This document shows positions 2,672 to 45,730 of a DNA stretch of 64,000 bases, one piece after another (the stretch's first letter is position 1; each line of letters begins with the position of its first letter). This stretch comes from Micromonospora sp. M71_S20. Lineage in GTDB: Bacteria > Actinomycetota > Actinomycetes > Mycobacteriales > Micromonosporaceae. A program made the position numbers and the translations under genes. The notes under the pieces were generated by a model, which saw only the letters and a program-made list of their open reading frames with translations, had not been told where the DNA came from and did no database searches. Location of the stretch: assembly GCF_003664255.1 (NCBI RefSeq), contig NZ_RCCV01000001.1, forward strand, positions 1,612,001 through 1,676,000. Reading direction: 5' to 3'.

Positions 2672-3415
2672 TCAGCCCGGGTCGGTCAGGTGGGTCCGGG
2701 TCGCGGTGAGCAGCTCCACCAGCTCGGCACCGTCGGCCGGGCCGAGCGCCGCGAACGCCGGCGAGGCCAGCCGGTCGGTCACCGCCTCGGCCCAGAGCCG
2801 CCGCCGGACCAGCGGCCCGACCGGCGGGTACGGCGGTGGCCAGCCGCAGGCGACCGCGCCCGCCTCCCCCTCCGGCCCGGCGAGCACGGCCTCCAGCGGG
2901 GTCATCCCGCTGGCCCTGACCGCGATCAGGTGGGCCCCGGCGAAGTACTCCCGGAGCAGGCGCAGGCCGACGGCCGCCCGGGCACCGGCCGTCCGGACCG
3001 GCACCGGCATGGCGCGCCAGGCGGCGAAGAGCGGCATGCCGCTGGCGTCCGCGGCGTCGACCGCGCGGCTGAGCAGGGCGGCGAGCCGGCTCACCCCGGC
3101 GAGGGCGTCGAGCCGCTCCTCGCCCCACCGGCAGCACTCAACCAGGGTGGCGGCGGCCACCTCGACCGGCGGGACGACCCGCCGGGCCGCGTCCCAGCCG
3201 TCGGCGACCGCTTCGGGGGCCAGGAAGCCGAGGGCGGCGGCGACCGTCTCGGCGCGGACGTCCCCGAGGGCGCCGGCCCGCCCGGTGACGTAGAACGCCC
3301 AGCCGGAGATGCCGAGCAGCCGCGCCCGACGCAGGGTGGTCGGGCAGCGGGTGAAGATGTCGCCGAGTTCCAGCACGACCGGTTTGCTGGCCGCGGCGAC
3401 CTGTTCCGGCGTCAT
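2672..3415 (-). CDS. SCO6745-like (SalK-like) conserved actinobacterial protein
   Basis: A 247-residue mostly helical protein. The N-terminal LGDIFTRCPTT and the LLGISGWAFYVTGRAGALGDV segment (about residues 15-55) match what I recall of the actinobacterial SCO6745 family, sometimes called SalK or helix-turn-helix protein; its molecular role is not established. The start is ATG 3415 (MTPEQVAAASK), just before the conserved block; the open frame upstream to 3490 has no family similarity. It stands alone on the minus strand between the GNAT gene and the coiled-coil gene. The family assignment is from memory and tentative. Confidence 0.55.
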   Translation of the reverse strand: MTPEQVAAASKPVVLELGDIFTRCPTTLRRARLLGISGWAFYVTGRAGALGDVRAETVAAALGFLAPEAVADGWDAARRVVPPVEVAAATLVECCRWGEERLDALAGVSRLAALLSRAVDAADASGMPLFAAWRAMPVPVRTAGARAAVGLRLLREYFAGAHLIAVRASGMTPLEAVLAGPEGEAGAVACGWPPPYPPVGPLVRRRLWAEAVTDRLASPAFAALGPADGAELVELLTATRTHLTDPG

Positions 3416-13937: not shown

Positions 13938-14004
13938 CCTGTTGATCAAGAGGTTTGCGTTAGGGAATGCGTCTTCCCAGGACGCAAACCTCTTGATCAA
14001 CAGG
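13938..14004. repeat. 67-bp nested inverted repeat between convergent genes (REP-like hairpin or terminator)
   Basis: Perfect 23-bp arms (13938-13960 and 13982-14004) carry the core TTGATCAAGAGGTTTGCGT and its complement. The 21-nt loop contains a second stem, GGGAA (13963-13967) and TTCCC (13974-13978). The element is much less GC-rich than its surroundings. It sits between the 3' ends of pmmB and the GPP34 gene. No T-tract follows, so it may be a dispersed palindrome as well as a transcription barrier. Confidence 0.75.
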
Positions 14005-15629: not shown

Positions 15630-16589
15630 ATGACGGCGACAGCGACGTCGGCCCGGTCGGAGCTCTCCGAGTTGGGACGATCCGAGACCGCTCTGCGGAC
15701 CTTCCTGCACGGCCTGCCCGGCGTGGATCAGGTCGGCGCGGAGCAGCGGGCGGCACAGCTCGGCACCCGCTCCATCAAGACCACCGCCAAGGCCCAGGCC
15801 ATCGACCTGGCGATCCGGATGGTCGACCTGACCACCCTCGAAGGGGCGGACACCCCGGGCAAGGTGCGGGCCCTCGCGGCCAAGGCGCTGCGCCCCGATC
15901 CGGCCGACCCGTCCTGCCCGCACGTGGGTGCGGTCTGCGTCTACCCCTCGATGGTGCCCCACGTGGCCGAGGTGCTGCGCGGCTCGGGCGTGCACCTGGC
16001 CAGCGTGGCGACCGCCTTCCCGTCGGGCCAGGCCCCGCTGGAGGTCAAGCTCGCCGACACCCGGGCCGCCGTGGCGGCCGGCGCCGACGAGATCGACATG
16101 GTGATCAACCGGGGCGCCTTCCTCGCCGGCCGCTACCAGGAGGTCTACGACGAGATCGTGGCCATTAAGGAGGCCTGTGGCGACGCCCACCTAAAGGTCA
16201 TCCTGGAGACCGGCGAGCTGGCCACGTACGACAACGTGCGGCGCGCCTCCTGGCTGGCGATGCTGGCCGGCGGCGACTTCATCAAGACCTCCACCGGCAA
16301 GGTTCCGGTCGCGGCCACTCCGCCGGTGACCCTGGTGATGCTGGAGGCGGTGCGCGACTTCCGGGCCGCCACCGGGCGGCAGGTCGGCGTGAAGCCGGCC
16401 GGCGGCATCAAGACCACCAAGGACGCGATCAAGTACCTGGTGATGGTCAACGAGACCGTCGGCCCGGACTGGCTGGACCCGGACTGGTTCCGGTTCGGCG
16501 CGTCCAGCCTGCTCAACGACCTGCTCATGCAGCGCACCAAGCTGACGACCGGCACCTACTCCGGTCCCGACTACTTCACCCTGGACTGA
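15630..16589 (+). CDS. deoC: Deoxyribose-phosphate aldolase
   Basis: A 319-residue class I aldolase that cleaves 2-deoxyribose-5-phosphate to glyceraldehyde-3-phosphate and acetaldehyde. The Schiff-base lysine lies in FIKTSTGK (Lys219), and the second conserved lysine in VGVKPAGG (about 255). It is the longer actinobacterial form, with about 60 extra N-terminal residues over the E. coli-like enzyme. Start is ATG 15630. The aldehyde dehydrogenase gene follows after 6 bp; acetaldehyde disposal is an obvious reason for this operon. Confidence 0.95.
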   Translation: MTATATSARSELSELGRSETALRTFLHGLPGVDQVGAEQRAAQLGTRSIKTTAKAQAIDLAIRMVDLTTLEGADTPGKVRALAAKALRPDPADPSCPHVGAVCVYPSMVPHVAEVLRGSGVHLASVATAFPSGQAPLEVKLADTRAAVAAGADEIDMVINRGAFLAGRYQEVYDEIVAIKEACGDAHLKVILETGELATYDNVRRASWLAMLAGGDFIKTSTGKVPVAATPPVTLVMLEAVRDFRAATGRQVGVKPAGGIKTTKDAIKYLVMVNETVGPDWLDPDWFRFGASSLLNDLLMQRTKLTTGTYSGPDYFTLD

Positions 16590-16595
16590 GAGCCG

Positions 16596-18026
16596 ATGTT
16601 CGAATACGCACCCGCCCCCGAGTCTCGCTCGGTGGTGGATCTCAAGGCCTCCTACGGGCTCTTCGTCGACGGTGAGTTCGTCGACCCCACCGACGGCGGC
16701 ACGTTCAAGACGGTCAACCCCGCCTCCGAGGAGGTGCTGGCCGAGGTCGCCGAGGCCGGCGCGCAGGACGTGGAGCGCGCCGTCCGCGCCGCCCGCCAGG
16801 CGTACGAGAAGGTCTGGGGCCCGATGTCGGGCCGGGACCGGGCGAAGTACCTCTTCCGGATCGCCCGGATCATCCAGGAGCGCTCCCGCGAGCTGGCCGT
16901 GCTGGAGTCCCTGGACAACGGCAAGCCGATCAAGGAGTCGCGCGACGTCGACCTGCCCCTGGTCGCCGCGCACTTCTTCTACTACGCGGGCTGGGCCGAC
17001 AAGCTCCCGTACGCCGGCTTCGGCCCCGATCCGAAGCCGCTGGGCGTGGCCGCGCAGGTCATCCCGTGGAACTTCCCGCTGCTGATGCTGGCGTGGAAGA
17101 TCGCCCCGGCGCTGGCCGCCGGCAACACGGTGGTGCTGAAGCCGGCCGAGACGACCCCGCTGACCGCGCTGCTCTTCGCCGAGATCTGCCAGCAGGCAGA
17201 CCTGCCCGCCGGCGTGGTCAACATCGTCACCGGCGCCGGCGAGACCGGCCGCGCGCTGGTCGAGCACCCGGGCGTGGACAAGGTCGCCTTCACCGGTTCG
17301 ACCGAGGTGGGCCGGGCCATCGCCCGCGCCGTGGCCGGCACCCGCAAGAAGCTCACCCTGGAGCTGGGCGGCAAGGCGGCCAACATCGTCTTCGACGACG
17401 CCCCCGTCGACCAGGCCGTCGAGGGCATCGTCAACGGGATCTTCTTCAACCAGGGGCACGTCTGCTGCGCCGGCTCCCGGCTGCTGATCCAGGAGAACGT
17501 CGCCGACCGGGTGCTGGAGTCGCTGAAGCGGCGGATGGCCCAGCTGCGCGTCGGCGACCCGCTGGACAAGAACACCGACATCGGCGCGATCAACTCGGCC
17601 GCGCAGCTGGCGCGGATCCGGGAGCTGTCCGACGCCGGCTCCGCCGAGGGCGCCGAGCGCTGGTCGCCGCCGTGCGAGCTGCCGGAGCGCGGCTTCTGGT
17701 TCGCGCCGACGATCTTCACCGGGGTCACCCAGGCGCACCGGATCGCCCGCGAGGAGATCTTCGGCCCGGTGCTGTCCGTGCTGACGTTCCGCACCCCGGC
17801 GGAGGCCGTCGAGAAGGCCAACAACACGCCGTACGGGCTGTCGGCCGGGATCTGGACCGACAAGGGCTCCCGGATCCTGTGGATGGCCGACCGGCTGCGC
17901 GCCGGGGTGGTCTGGGCCAACACGTTCAACAAGTTCGACCCCACCTCGCCGTTCGGCGGCTACAAGGAGTCGGGCTACGGTCGCGAGGGCGGCCGGCACG
18001 GGCTGGAGGGCTACCTCAATGTCTGA
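16596..18026 (+). CDS. Aldehyde dehydrogenase, NAD(P)-dependent
   Basis: A 476-residue full-length aldehyde dehydrogenase. Cofactor and catalytic elements are VIPWNFPLLM, LKPAETTP, FTGSTEVG, general base Glu256 in LELGGK and catalytic Cys290 in FNQGHVCCAGSR. The C-terminal NTFNKFDPTSPFGGYKESG is also typical. Start is ATG 16596, 6 bp after deoC. In this operon it would oxidise the acetaldehyde released by DeoC. Its last 8 bp overlap the start of the truncated paralogue, so the two are translationally coupled. Confidence 0.92.
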   Translation: MFEYAPAPESRSVVDLKASYGLFVDGEFVDPTDGGTFKTVNPASEEVLAEVAEAGAQDVERAVRAARQAYEKVWGPMSGRDRAKYLFRIARIIQERSRELAVLESLDNGKPIKESRDVDLPLVAAHFFYYAGWADKLPYAGFGPDPKPLGVAAQVIPWNFPLLMLAWKIAPALAAGNTVVLKPAETTPLTALLFAEICQQADLPAGVVNIVTGAGETGRALVEHPGVDKVAFTGSTEVGRAIARAVAGTRKKLTLELGGKAANIVFDDAPVDQAVEGIVNGIFFNQGHVCCAGSRLLIQENVADRVLESLKRRMAQLRVGDPLDKNTDIGAINSAAQLARIRELSDAGSAEGAERWSPPCELPERGFWFAPTIFTGVTQAHRIAREEIFGPVLSVLTFRTPAEAVEKANNTPYGLSAGIWTDKGSRILWMADRLRAGVVWANTFNKFDPTSPFGGYKESGYGREGGRHGLEGYLNV

Positions 18027-18843
18027 GCGGGTCGCGGTACGCAAGACGTACAAGCTCTTCATCGGCGGGAAGTTCCCGCGCAGCGAGTCGGGACGGTCGT
18101 ATCTCGTGCAGGACTCCAACGTGTCGCTGGCCTCCCGCAAGGACGCGCGGGACGCCGTCGTCGCCGCCCGCGCCGCCGTGAAGGGCTGGGCCGGGGCGAC
18201 CGCGTACAACCGGGGTCAGATCCTCTACCGGGTCGCCGAGATGCTGGAGGGCCGGCGCGAGCAGTTCGTCGCCCTCGGCGTGCCCGGCGACGAGGTCGAC
18301 GCGGCCGTGGACCGCTGGGTCTGGTACGCCGGCTGGTCCGACAAGCTCCCCCAGGTGTACGGCGGCGCCAACCCGGTCGCCGGGCCGTACTTCAACCTGT
18401 CGGCGCCCGAGCCGACCGGCGTGGTGGCCGTGGTCGCCCCCGAGTCCCCGGCGCTGCTCGGCCTGGTCAGCGTGATCGCCCCGGCGATCGTCACCGGCAA
18501 CACCGTGGTGGTGGCGACCTCGCCGACGCAGCCCCTGGCGGCGGTGACCCTGGCGGAGGTGCTGGCCACCTCCGACCTGCCCGGCGGCGTGGTCAACCTG
18601 CTCACCGGCCGGATCGCCGAGACCGTGCCGGCGCTGGCCGCCCACATGGACGTCAACGCCATCGACCTGACCGGGGTGGCCGACGCCGAGCTGGCGACGG
18701 AGCTGGAGATCAAGGCGGCGCAGAACCTCAAGCGGGTGCTCCGGCCGGCCCCGGCCGACCACGACTGGTCCGCCGACCCGGGCATCACCCGGATGACCAC
18801 CCTGCTGGAGACGAAGACGGTCTGGCACCCCAAGGGGGTGTAA
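18019..18843 (+). CDS. Truncated aldehyde dehydrogenase paralogue lacking the catalytic domain
   Basis: A 274-residue protein homologous to the N-terminal, cofactor-binding part of aldehyde dehydrogenases: YKLFIGGKFPRSESGR, WVWYAGWSDKLPQ, VVAVVAPESPALLG and TGNTVVVATS. It ends before the catalytic half: there is no Cys nucleophile and no GGK motif, and its C-terminus (HDWSADPGITRM) is unrelated. The frame is intact with normal codon bias, so it is not a decaying pseudogene. ATG 18019 overlaps the preceding stop by 8 bp. It may form mixed oligomers with, or regulate, the active partner; that is inference. Confidence 0.82.
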   Translation: MSERVAVRKTYKLFIGGKFPRSESGRSYLVQDSNVSLASRKDARDAVVAARAAVKGWAGATAYNRGQILYRVAEMLEGRREQFVALGVPGDEVDAAVDRWVWYAGWSDKLPQVYGGANPVAGPYFNLSAPEPTGVVAVVAPESPALLGLVSVIAPAIVTGNTVVVATSPTQPLAAVTLAEVLATSDLPGGVVNLLTGRIAETVPALAAHMDVNAIDLTGVADAELATELEIKAAQNLKRVLRPAPADHDWSADPGITRMTTLLETKTVWHPKGV

Positions 18844-18859: not shown

Positions 18860-18932
18860 GGTTTTCCGGGGAGCCCCGCCCGCTCCGGGCGGTCAGGCTT
18901 GATCCCTGCGCGGGCGGGGCTCCCCGAAAACC
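18860..18932 (+). terminator. Conserved-loop 3' hairpin, copy 1
   Basis: A 23/22-bp stem (18860-18882 with 18911-18932, one bulged C) closes a 28-nt loop. It begins 16 nt after the stop of the truncated dehydrogenase. The loop contains GGCGGTCAGGCTTGATCC; a 25-nt loop block (18883-18907) recurs on the minus strand at 44996-44972 inside a different stem. Position and shape suggest a transcription terminator or 3'-end element for the deoC operon. Confidence 0.75.
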
Positions 18933-43611: not shown

Positions 43612-44892
43612 TCAGCCGATCCGCTCGATGACCAGCGGCGTCGCGGCGGGCGCGACCGGCGAGATCCGTACCGCCCGCGCGGCGTCGTCCCGCGCCGCCG
43701 GGATCCGGGCGGCGTCCTGGGCGCGCAGCTCGTAGAGCGGGTCGCCCGCCCGCACCGGGTCACCCGGGCGCCGGTGCAGCACTATCCCCGAGGGCACGCT
43801 GACCGGGTCCTCCTTGCGGGCCCGCCCGGCGCCGAGCCGCCAGGCGGCCACCCCCATGGCGTACGCGTCGATCGCCGCGACGTGGCCGTCGGCGTCGGCG
43901 CGGACCACCTCGACCTCGTTCGCGGTGGGCATCGGGGCGTCCGGATCCCCGCCCTGGGCGCGGATCATCGCCCGCCAGGAGTCCATCGCCCGGCCGTCGC
44001 GCAGGGCGGCCTCCGGGTCGGCGTCCGGCAGCCCGGCCGCGTCGAGCATCTCGCGGGCCAGTGCCAGGGTCAGCTCGACCACGTCGGCGGGGCCGCCCCC
44101 GGCGAGCACCTCGACGGACTCGGTCACCTCGACGGCGTTGCCGATGGCCAGGCCCAGCGGGGTGGACATGTCGGTGAGCAGGGCGACCGTCCGTACGCCG
44201 TGCGCGCCGCCCAGCTCGACCATCGTCCGGGCCAGCTCGCGGGCCTGCTCGACGGACTTCATGAACGCGCCCGAGCCGACCTTGACGTCGAGCACCAGCG
44301 CGCCGGTGCCCTCCGCGATCTTCTTGCTCATGATCGAGCTGGCGATCAGCGGGATGGCCTCGACGGTTCCGGTCACGTCGCGCAGCGCGTACAGCTTGCG
44401 GTCGGCGGGGGCGAGCCCCGCGCCGGCCGCGCAGATCGCCGCGCCGACGTCGCGGAGCTGGGCGGTGAACTCGTCGTTGCTCAGCGCCGCCCGCCAACCC
44501 GGGATCGACTCCAGCTTGTCGAGGGTGCCGCCGGTGTGCCCGAGGCCCCGGCCGCTGAGCTGCGGCACGGCGGCGCCGCACGCCGCCACCAGCGGGGTGA
44601 GCGGCAGGGTGATCTTGTCACCGACGCCGCCCGTGGAGTGCTTGTCGACGGTCGGCCGGTCCACGGCGGAGAGGTCGAGCCGCTCCCCGCTGGCGATCAT
44701 CGCGGCGGTCCACCGGGCGATCTCCGGACCGGTCATGCCGCGCAGCAGGATCGCCATGGCCAGCGCCGACATCTGCTCGTCGGCGACCACCCCCCGGGTG
44801 TACGCGTCCACCACCCAGTCGATCTGCGCGTCGGAGAGCACACCCCCGTCCCGCTTGACCCGGATGACGTCAACCGCCGTGAAAGCACTCAC
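43612..44892 (-). CDS. deoA: Thymidine phosphorylase
   Basis: A 426-residue pyrimidine-nucleoside phosphorylase that releases thymine or uracil and (deoxy)ribose-1-phosphate. The phosphate-binding VDKHSTGGVGDKITLPL (about 82-98), GRGLGHTGGTLDKLESIPG and DVKVGSGAFMK motifs are intact, and the length is normal. GTG 44892 gives the usual N-terminus MSAFTAVDVIRVKRDG. It follows cdd on the same strand after a 133-bp gap containing a large hairpin, so it may have its own promoter or depend on read-through. Confidence 0.95.
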   Translation of the reverse strand: MSAFTAVDVIRVKRDGGVLSDAQIDWVVDAYTRGVVADEQMSALAMAILLRGMTGPEIARWTAAMIASGERLDLSAVDRPTVDKHSTGGVGDKITLPLTPLVAACGAAVPQLSGRGLGHTGGTLDKLESIPGWRAALSNDEFTAQLRDVGAAICAAGAGLAPADRKLYALRDVTGTVEAIPLIASSIMSKKIAEGTGALVLDVKVGSGAFMKSVEQARELARTMVELGGAHGVRTVALLTDMSTPLGLAIGNAVEVTESVEVLAGGGPADVVELTLALAREMLDAAGLPDADPEAALRDGRAMDSWRAMIRAQGGDPDAPMPTANEVEVVRADADGHVAAIDAYAMGVAAWRLGAGRARKEDPVSVPSGIVLHRRPGDPVRAGDPLYELRAQDAARIPAARDDAARAVRISPVAPAATPLVIERIG

Positions 44893-44945
44893 CTTTGAGT
44901 TCCTATCAGTCGTTGTGGAACGGGCCGACGGGCCGCGACCACCGA

Positions 44946-45019
44946 GGGCTCGGGCCGACCGTGCCCGGCGGAGGGATCAAGCCTGACCGCCCGGAGCCGG
45001 GCACGGTCGGCCCGAGCCC
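44946..45019 (-). terminator. Conserved-loop 3' hairpin, copy 2
   Basis: A perfect 24-bp stem (44946-44969 with 44996-45019) and a 26-nt loop, beginning 6 nt after the cdd stop. The loop, read on the minus strand, contains GGCGGTCAGGCTTGATCC, identical to copy 1 at 18883-18907 and in the same orientation relative to the gene it follows. The two stems share no sequence. Likely a terminator or attenuator between cdd and deoA. Confidence 0.78.
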
Positions 45020-45025
45020 CAAAGC

Positions 45026-45730
45026 TCAACCAACCCAGCGGGCAGGGATCTCCATCGGCGGCTCACCCTCGCCGGCCCAGAAGATCGCCCCGGACGCGTC
45101 CACGACCACCACCCGGGGCGTACGGGCGTGGCCCCAGGCGATCGCCTCCGCCGGCTCGTCCCAGCTCGGGCCCTCCTCCAGCACGCCGGTCTCGGCGCCC
45201 TCGTTGTCGCCCGCGGACCGCTCCCAGTAGGCCGTCCAGACCTGCTGGCCGGCGGAGAGGTCGGGGTGCACGAAGACCGTGCCGCGCCCGCGCCAGGCGG
45301 CCAGCCGCTCCGGCACCACGGGCACCGGGGCCTCCCCCGTCACGGCCTCCAGGTCGGTCACGTCGAAGGCGTGCGGCAGCAGCTCGGCCATCCGCAGCGG
45401 CCCGCCCCTCGCCTCGATGAGGCACTCCGGCCCGCCCTGCTCCCAGAGCAGCTGGCGGCACCGGCCGCACGGCATCAGCGGCTCGCCGGTGGCGTCGACA
45501 CAGGAGAGGGCCACGATCCGGCCGCCGCCGGTGGCGTGCAGCGAGGAGACCACCCCGCACTCGGCGCAGAGCACCACGCCGTACGCGGCGTTCTCCACGT
45601 TGCAGCCGACCACCACCCGGCCGTCGTCGACCAGCGCGGCCGCCCCGACCGGGAACTTCGAGTACGGCACGTACGCGTGCCGCATCACCTCGGTGGCGGC
45701 GGCCCGCAGCCGCTCCCAGTCGATCTCCAT
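45026..45730 (-). CDS. cdd: Cytidine deaminase with C-terminal extension
   Basis: The N-terminal 130 residues are a standard homotetrameric-type cytidine deaminase: VPYSKFPVGAAAL, CNVENAAYG, Cys55-Ala-Glu57 with the catalytic Glu, and PCGRC (Cys88, Cys91) completing the zinc site. Usual length is about 130; here it runs to 234. The extra about 100 residues (VFVHPDLSAGQQVWTAYWE, TPRVVVVDASGAIFWAGEGEPPMEIPARWVG) are ordered-looking and of unknown function. Start is ATG 45730, 14 bp after the permease gene, last in the transporter operon. Confidence 0.92.
   Translation of the reverse strand: MEIDWERLRAAATEVMRHAYVPYSKFPVGAAALVDDGRVVVGCNVENAAYGVVLCAECGVVSSLHATGGGRIVALSCVDATGEPLMPCGRCRQLLWEQGGPECLIEARGGPLRMAELLPHAFDVTDLEAVTGEAPVPVVPERLAAWRGRGTVFVHPDLSAGQQVWTAYWERSAGDNEGAETGVLEEGPSWDEPAEAIAWGHARTPRVVVVDASGAIFWAGEGEPPMEIPARWVG

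What the first reader, a model, noticed from the sequence alone, without database searches (positions are those of the whole stretch)
18860..18932. Two 3'-end hairpins share a 25-nt loop but have unrelated stems (copy 1 here, copy 2 at 44946-45019)
Seen in sequence: the loop block at 18883-18907 is identical to the minus-strand block 44996-44972 (core GGCGGTCAGGCTTGATCC), while the closing stems (23 and 24 bp) share no sequence yet each is almost perfectly self-complementary. Both start within 16 nt of a stop codon, and the loop has the same orientation relative to the upstream gene (truncated aldehyde dehydrogenase; cdd). Conserved loop plus freely varying but paired stems means structure is maintained and the loop is the recognised part. 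Inference: a family of terminators or 3'-end elements with a conserved apical loop, possibly bound by a protein or small RNA, or spread by a mobile process that copies loops into existing hairpins.
Basis: partly seen in the sequence, partly recalled or inferred. Interest (0 to 1): 0.72.

Follow-up and report, generated by a model that had tools for sequence, protein, structure and literature searches.

The report
Capped hairpins at gene ends
Two long DNA hairpins just behind two genes belong to a large, apparently undescribed family in soil actinobacteria whose tip sequence is frozen while the paired stem is rewritten again and again, which suggests that something in the cell recognises the tip.

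Summary
The window's genome holds nine hairpins with the same cap. In the genus, 137 of 151 genomes have the core. A covariance model finds matches in 128 of 250 genomes and 19 of 44 genera of the family. The cap also tops unrelated stems in Demequina, Haloactinopolyspora and Trueperella.

Of 4555 stem pairs in 191 elements 97% are Watson-Crick, although 22 of 32 model pairs changed on both sides. G-U wobbles are rarer than A-C mismatches (14 to 60), but 45 of the 60 lie 4-8 bp below the cap; further out the two are equal (11 to 9). Ordinary tandem 3' hairpins give 39 to 19, convergent ones 12 to 14. This suggests, without proving, that arms are matched at the DNA level, for example by template switching.

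Of 176 elements 130 follow a gene in sense, about 18 nt after the stop. T-tracts are rare (3 of 187). Some lie inside operons or in frame inside midA.

Best reading: a dispersed 3'-end element with a recognised cap, not a classical terminator. Recogniser and mode of spread are unknown.

The parts
18860..18883 (+). copy 1, 5' arm of the stem (24 nt)
18884..18909 (+). copy 1, conserved cap TCCGGGCGGTCAGGCTTGATCCCTGC; predicted inner hairpin GGTCA/TGATC with GGCT loop, bulged C and small internal loop
18910..18932 (+). copy 1, 3' arm of the stem (23 nt)
18019..18843 (+). aldehyde-dehydrogenase-like gene (PF00171, 274 aa); stop 16 nt before copy 1
   Evidence: cluster 3
44996..45019 (-). copy 2, 5' arm of the stem (24 nt, perfectly paired)
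44970..44995 (-). copy 2, conserved cap
44946..44969 (-). copy 2, 3' arm of the stem
45026..45730 (-). cdd-like cytidine deaminase (PF00383); stop 6 nt before copy 2
43612..44892 (-). thymidine-phosphorylase-like gene (PF00591, PYNP_C), same strand, called start 53 nt after copy 2: the hairpin lies between two genes of one apparent operon

Best explanation
Both hairpins belong to one dispersed family. Each element is an outer stem of about 22-26 bp crowned by a nearly invariant cap of about 26 nt. Shown: copy number, cap constancy, covarying and nearly perfect stems, and a position just behind stop codons in sense. Inferred: once the gene is transcribed, the RNA folds into this very stable hairpin, which marks and protects the mRNA 3' end (or trims a read-through transcript) without being a classical U-tract terminator, and a protein binds the cap. 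Also inferred: at the DNA level the fold-back cap lets a polymerase copy one arm from the other during replication (template switching). The stem sequence can then change quickly while pairing stays almost perfect, and the cap, which is what is recognised, stays fixed. Copies spread as whole elements by an unknown route.
For: Nine copies in the own genome. 137 of 151 genus genomes with the core; reversed-pattern control 0 or 1. 128 of 250 family genomes with the model. 22 of 32 pairs with two-sided changes. Orthologous cdd sites: 19 distinct stems, 13 of 24 positions with two or more Watson-Crick types, 13 non-Watson-Crick cells of 454, no G-T. 130 of 176 elements have an upstream sense gene, median gap 18-19 nt; convergent sites lie nearer the sense stop in 62 and nearer the antisense stop in 5. 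Cap letters outside the searched core are also constant: CTCCGGGC before and CT(G/C)C after it in 50 of 59 elements found by the core pattern alone. G-T 14 against A-C 60, against 39 to 19 in ordinary tandem 3' hairpins of the same loci (Fisher p = 2e-8; like contexts merged 12 to 43, p = 2e-6) and 68 to 45 in all 149 control hairpins (p = 2e-8). Outer stem positions 9-22: 2580 of 2615 pairs Watson-Crick with no preference for G-T (11 to 9). Truncated tandem copies on the 5' side in 23 of 190 elements, 3' side 9 of 190, random places 5 of 312, with examples at coaX: a sign that the hairpin disturbs replication. The mechanism is in print: fold-back template switching keeps the loop and repairs the stem (PMC8794818, abstract and passages).
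Against: No expression data, so no 3' end is shown. Some copies are antisense (10 of 71 tandem), inside midA in both orientations, or antisense between rpoB and rpoC. 14 of 151 genus genomes have no hit, so it is dispensable. The A-C excess sits mostly at stem positions 4-8 (45 of 60) and is partly shared by descent; in the outer stem G-T and A-C are about equal and do not differ significantly from the tandem control (hand count 10 to 9, p = 0.28; recount 11 to 9). Ordinary convergent hairpins also show no G-T preference (12 to 14), and many family members lie at convergent sites; against them the family differs only weakly (p = 0.01; merged 0.04). No ancestral reconstruction was done.
Confidence: 0.42

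Rival explanations
1. A non-autonomous mobile palindrome (REP-, RPE- or MITE-like): the cap is the recognition site of an unknown transposase or recombinase acting on folded single strands. The place behind genes is target choice or the result of purging, and the element has no host function.
For: Presence and absence at the same site (cdd 13 filled, 16 empty, 1 cut off, of 30; coaX 6 filled, 23 without the intact cap, 1 unresolved, of 30). 47 gene clusters for 141 elements. In-frame copies inside midA in 11 of 30 genomes. The same stem at unrelated loci (coaX and midA). Identical 22-nt cap in three further orders.
Against: No cognate enzyme found. Y1 transposase in 4 of 16 genomes with the element and 3 of 14 without, absent from the own genome. 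No terminal repeats or target duplication recognised. No exact 22-nt cap in viral contigs; no match covering 80% or more in plasmids or phages (one window copy each). Strong sense bias close to stops.
Confidence: 0.35
2. An intrinsic transcription terminator with a conserved apical loop, bound by a termination factor.
For: Position behind stop codons; 67 of 176 elements between convergent genes against 15 between divergent ones.
Against: TTTT within 16 nt after the stem in 3 of 187. Copies between cdd and deoA and between rpoB and rpoC. In-frame copies inside midA.
Confidence: 0.12
3. Pure RNA-level selection on the transcript hairpin explains the covariation; no DNA-level repair of the arms.
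For: Strong covariation and sense orientation. Outer-stem wobble counts do not differ significantly from the tandem control.
Against: G-T rarer than A-C overall (14 to 60; merged contexts 12 to 43), opposite to ordinary tandem 3' hairpins. Whole inner halves replaced at one site (cluster 6).
Confidence: 0.23
4. Loop swapping: a mobile 25-nt loop enters existing hairpins.
For: The same cap on wholly different stems in Trueperella, Demequina and Haloactinopolyspora.
Against: By eye the empty cdd sites carry no stem of this kind without a loop, apart from two arm remnants. Stems within the family align and drift in place. Flanks beyond the stem are partly shared.
Confidence: 0.04

Closest known systems
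REP sequences and REPINs with RAYT (TnpAREP)
   Same: Short, dispersed, mostly extragenic palindromes in many copies (definition in PMC12306157, passages); folded single-strand recognition is known there (PMC8266576, abstract).
   Different: In this family the stem varies and the cap is fixed. Y1 transposase is absent from the own genome and does not track the copies. A GTAG-type motif was not looked for.
Rickettsia palindromic elements (RPE)
   Same: Palindromic repeats inserted in frame inside genes (PMC10969869, passages).
   Different: RPEs are about 150 bp and are reported there as insertions in genes; here most copies follow stop codons and only the cap is constant.
SPRITE and other terminator-like MITEs of pneumococcus
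   Same: Dispersed elements that hold Rho-independent terminator-like sequences (PMC10969869, passages).
   Different: Almost no T-tracts here; no terminal inverted repeats or target duplications recognised.
Rho-independent terminators, incl. paired DNA uptake signals
   Same: Hairpins behind genes; uptake signals in terminators are treated in PMC1852404 (one-line abstract and section list seen; detail recalled).
   Different: There, as recalled, the repeated motif forms the stem; here it forms the cap, and the U-tract is missing.
Hairpins repaired by template switching (Monttinen and Loytynoja 2022)
   Same: Mirrored changes with the loop kept (PMC8794818, abstract and passages).
   Different: Described there for rRNA genes and short stems; here 22-26 bp stems of a dispersed element.
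Integron attC sites (recalled)
   Same: Folded strand with variable stem and conserved unpaired features.
   Different: No integrase, cassette array or attC core was looked for.

Membership tests
REP/REPIN with RAYT | short palindromic repeats in many mostly intergenic copies | tested here: met
   (19 of 176 inside a called gene)
REP/REPIN with RAYT | cognate Y1 (TnpAREP) transposase in the genome | tested here: not met
   PF01797 in 7 of 30 genus genomes: 4 of 16 with the element, 3 of 14 without; none in G000, G055, G058, G075, G096
REP/REPIN with RAYT | copies highly similar, with a common consensus motif (PMC12306157 passage) | tested here: inconclusive
   cap met, stem not: stems covary, cap constant
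Rho-independent terminator | stable G+C-rich hairpin behind a gene | tested here: met
Rho-independent terminator | T-run directly after the stem | tested here: not met
   TTTT in the first 16 nt in 3 of 187
Rho-independent terminator | ends transcription | not testable with these tools
   no expression data; operon-internal copies argue against it
MITE | terminal inverted repeats with target duplication and a parent transposon | tested here: inconclusive
   flank consensus weak and no clear boundaries; no parent element found, but none was searched for beyond
RPE-like | in-frame insertion in coding genes | tested here: met
   midA in 11 of 30 genomes; a minority of copies
Rfam-listed RNA | match at the curated threshold | tested here: not met
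   0 matches in the window; in 14 loci three sub-threshold hits, two of them microRNA precursor models lying on the hairpins
Template-switch-maintained hairpin | mirrored changes without G-U intermediates | tested here: inconclusive
   mirrored changes and few wobbles; outer stem not different from the tandem control; no ancestral reconstruction

The most novel reading that the evidence does not exclude
A new kind of dispersed element in which only the cap is the address: a conserved actinobacterial factor recognises the folded cap, while fold-back DNA synthesis keeps rewriting the stem. Unrelated stems in distant orders therefore carry one identical 22-26 nt cap, and the element both spreads and sets mRNA 3' ends.
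Probability: 0.25. Interest if true: 0.85.

Novelty: new variant of a known kind. Interest (0 to 1): 0.65.

Why it matters
Compensatory change is usually read as proof of RNA function. Here is a large natural set, many copies at orthologous and new sites, in which stems are rewritten with few wobble steps while the tip hardly changes. It allows direct tests of DNA-level hairpin repair and of what reads the tip. If the cap binds a protein, it points to an unknown layer of 3'-end control in a group of bacteria that includes antibiotic producers.

Tried and rejected
Rfam: nothing real. RAYT/Y1 transposase as partner: no association. Viral contigs (0 exact), plasmids and phages (only fragments up to 36% of the query at E 0.7-0.8): no carrier seen. 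Literature: the 14-mer of the cap occurs in 9 papers; by title and abstract start none concerns this element, and the texts were not opened. Word searches listed no description of the family; one search failed. Subscription papers are mostly not held, so 'undescribed' means only this. A first crude ORF-based context count (tandem 10 sense, 6 antisense) was replaced by a codon-scored one on more loci. A 3-mismatch scan of 24 other-genus genomes was too noisy to count copies, and only its fetched loci were used.

Rows dropped before counts: 5 of 196 contexts without a scoring stem, namely L017 (chance), L047, L129, L210 and L242 (these look like decayed or shifted elements). 15 of 191 elements with short flanks. 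4 of 191 (short stem or flank). G001 at cdd (contig end). G055 at coaX, although one search lists a match there. The control still holds two family members (L153, L218), seen. may include generic hairpins among its weaker matches. Of the loci from other families of the order, G443 and G455 were not inspected; of those read, L272 and L275 are clear, L273 is degraded, L271 and L274 are not convincing. The phylum hit L303 lies in coding sequence without such a hairpin. Of the 41 stretches nine loci were folded; of the five from outside Micromonosporaceae, four have a clear capped stem and L315 a poor one. L001 in the own genome has only a 13-bp stem. The odds of the best reading were lowered from 0.45 to 0.42 and those of the RNA-only rival raised from 0.20 to 0.23 after the recount by stem position.

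Full report
What is there. The window (G000:C1:1612001-1676000) carries two long hairpins with one identical 25-nt block at the tip. Copy 1 lies at 18860-18932 on the plus strand, 16 nt behind a 274-aa aldehyde-dehydrogenase-like gene. Copy 2 lies at 45019-44946 on the minus strand, 6 nt behind cdd and 53 nt before a same-strand thymidine-phosphorylase-like gene. Two hits of the 18-mer core stand against 0.12 expected. Both fold far below shuffles, and they rank first and second among the inverted repeats.

Family in the own genome. Of 20 places with at most two mismatches to the 15-mer core, nine (eight exact, one with one mismatch; L001-L009) sit at the tip of a stem, L001 on one of only 13 bp; the other eleven (L010-L020) show no such capped hairpin in the folds, by eye. 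Five of the nine (L001, L002, L006, L007, L008) lie in segments shared over about 1 kb, next to paralogues of one secreted-looking protein, so they are not independent insertions. The covariance model lists ten matches in this genome; the tenth was not examined.

Wider distribution. Core with at most one mismatch: 137 of 151 genus genomes, up to 22 places, reversed-pattern control 0 or 1. Model R1: 128 of 250 genomes of the family, 19 of 44 genera, at E <= 0.001. 22-mer with at most 2 mismatches: 68 of 397 genomes of the order, 8 of 85 genera. Phylum sample: 3 of 396, one of them a coding hit without such a hairpin. A 23-letter pattern, written so as to leave out the commonest cap variant, gave 41 stretches in the named genome collection: mostly Micromonospora, with Verrucosispora, Actinoplanes-type genera and Catenuloplanes, but also Trueperella bonasi (three), an uncultured Demequina and Haloactinopolyspora alba, which NCBI places in three other orders. 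Of those last five loci, four have a clear capped stem, with stem sequences unlike each other. The genus name Micromonospora for the window's own organism is inferred from this and was not given.

Anatomy. In 35 aligned elements (chosen by the core, so its 15 letters are nearly constant by selection) 22 of 32 predicted pairs have sequences with both sides changed. The cap letters outside the core are nearly as constant: CTCCGGGC before it and CT(G/C)C after it in 50 of 59 elements found by the core pattern alone. The cap itself is predicted to form GGTCA/TGATC around GGCT, with a bulged C and a small internal loop. Outside the stem only weak flank patterns remain.

How the stem changes. In 191 of 196 unique contexts with a scoring stem there are 4555 pairs: 3657 G-C, 775 A-T, 14 G-T, 60 A-C, 49 other; 110 stems are perfect. 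Merging identical contexts leaves 12 G-T and 43 A-C. By position the excess of A-C sits 4-8 bp below the cap (1 G-T, 45 A-C of 955 pairs); at positions 9-22 it is 11 G-T and 9 A-C of 2615. Ordinary hairpins in the same loci, found with similar scoring, give: tandem 3' sense, 66 hairpins, 39 G-T and 19 A-C; convergent, 43 hairpins, 12 and 14; other places, 40 hairpins, 17 and 12. The family differs from the tandem control overall (p = 2e-8; 2e-6 merged) but not for the outer stem alone (p = 0.28), and from the convergent control weakly (p = 0.01; merged 0.04). The copies are related, so these p values are optimistic. At single orthologous sites the stems differ and still pair: cdd 19 distinct stems with 13 non-Watson-Crick cells of 454; at one site (cluster 6) whole inner halves are replaced. 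This fits fold-back template switching, which keeps the loop and repairs the stem (PMC8794818; abstract and passages read). A plain RNA-selection model predicts a preference for G-U steps, which is not seen; but the outer-stem numbers are too small to exclude it.

Signs of trouble in replication. Short tandem copies of the 5' flank, some with part of the 5' arm, stand before 23 of 190 elements; 9 of 190 have repeats behind; 5 of 312 random places have them. At coaX 6 of 30 genomes have the element, 23 do not have it intact and one was not resolved. G058 and G121 show truncated copies before a full element, G099 only truncated pieces, and G031 keeps only the outer palindrome without the cap. 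At cdd two of 16 empty genomes (G067, G076) keep pieces of an arm. So elements are lost as well as gained.

Position. Of 176 elements with enough flank, 61 lie between two genes in sense, 67 between convergent genes, 15 divergent, 10 antisense tandem, 19 inside a called gene, and 4 in other settings. The sense stop is 18-19 nt away at the median. By gene cluster the tandem bias is 16 to 5 (p = 0.027), and convergent elements lie nearer the sense stop in 62 of 67. The loci were partly fetched as best matches, so they are no random sample. The neighbours of 141 elements fall into 47 clusters; several look by eye like core genes (sdhB, relA, clpC, adk, glmM, secA, rho), not checked by Pfam except cdd and ALDH. 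In midA, 11 of 30 genomes carry the hairpin in frame inside the gene, in two places and both orientations (Methyltransf_28). In Haloactinopolyspora it lies antisense between rpoB and rpoC.

What it does. The place behind stops and the sense bias suggest an mRNA 3'-end role. The missing T-tract (3 of 187 with TTTT) and the operon-internal copies speak against a strong intrinsic terminator. A nearly invariant tip on free stems suggests that the tip is recognised. No binder is known. RAYT transposase was tested because REP elements are the nearest relatives in kind: 4 of 16 genomes with the element have a Y1 transposase and 3 of 14 without; the own genome has none. No viral, plasmid or phage carrier was found.

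Verdict. Observation confirmed, interpretation partly supported. A real, widespread, apparently undescribed family (searches; the library is incomplete). It works like a REP-type 3' hairpin, but it fails the cognate-transposase test of REP/RAYT, keeps only the cap constant, and fails the T-tract test of terminators.

Noticed in passing
window 13938-14004: A separate perfect 23-bp palindrome (CCTGTTGATCAAGAGG...). Fetched loci of related genomes hold other long palindromes with GATC near their ends (e.g. L142, L143, L195, L212, L235, L237, L256): perhaps a second palindrome class.
   Followed up: no
L001, L002, L006, L007, L008 (own genome): Five copies lie in duplicated segments of about 1 kb beside paralogues of one small secreted-looking protein.
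   Followed up: partly
L353 about 3190-3260: Capped hairpin in the rpoB-rpoC spacer of Haloactinopolyspora alba, antisense to both genes.
   Followed up: partly
L314 2950-3074 (Trueperella bonasi): The capped hairpin stands before what looks by eye like a TPP riboswitch, and an 11-nt direct repeat (TAGGCGCTGAG) flanks the hairpin and the stretch behind it. Not checked with Rfam.
   Followed up: no
window 15630-18843 and 43612-45730: Both window copies sit by genes that look like deoxynucleoside catabolism (a deoC-like gene by eye, ALDH, cdd, thymidine phosphorylase). Chance or regulon not tested.
   Followed up: no
stem positions 4-8 of the family: A-C mismatches cluster 4-8 bp below the cap (45 of 60), more often A in the 5' arm; on the other strand they would be G-T wobbles. 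Unexplained.
   Followed up: partly
L148 about 2262 (G024, cdd-deoA spacer): Where relatives have the capped hairpin, G024 has a different long imperfect palindrome.
   Followed up: no
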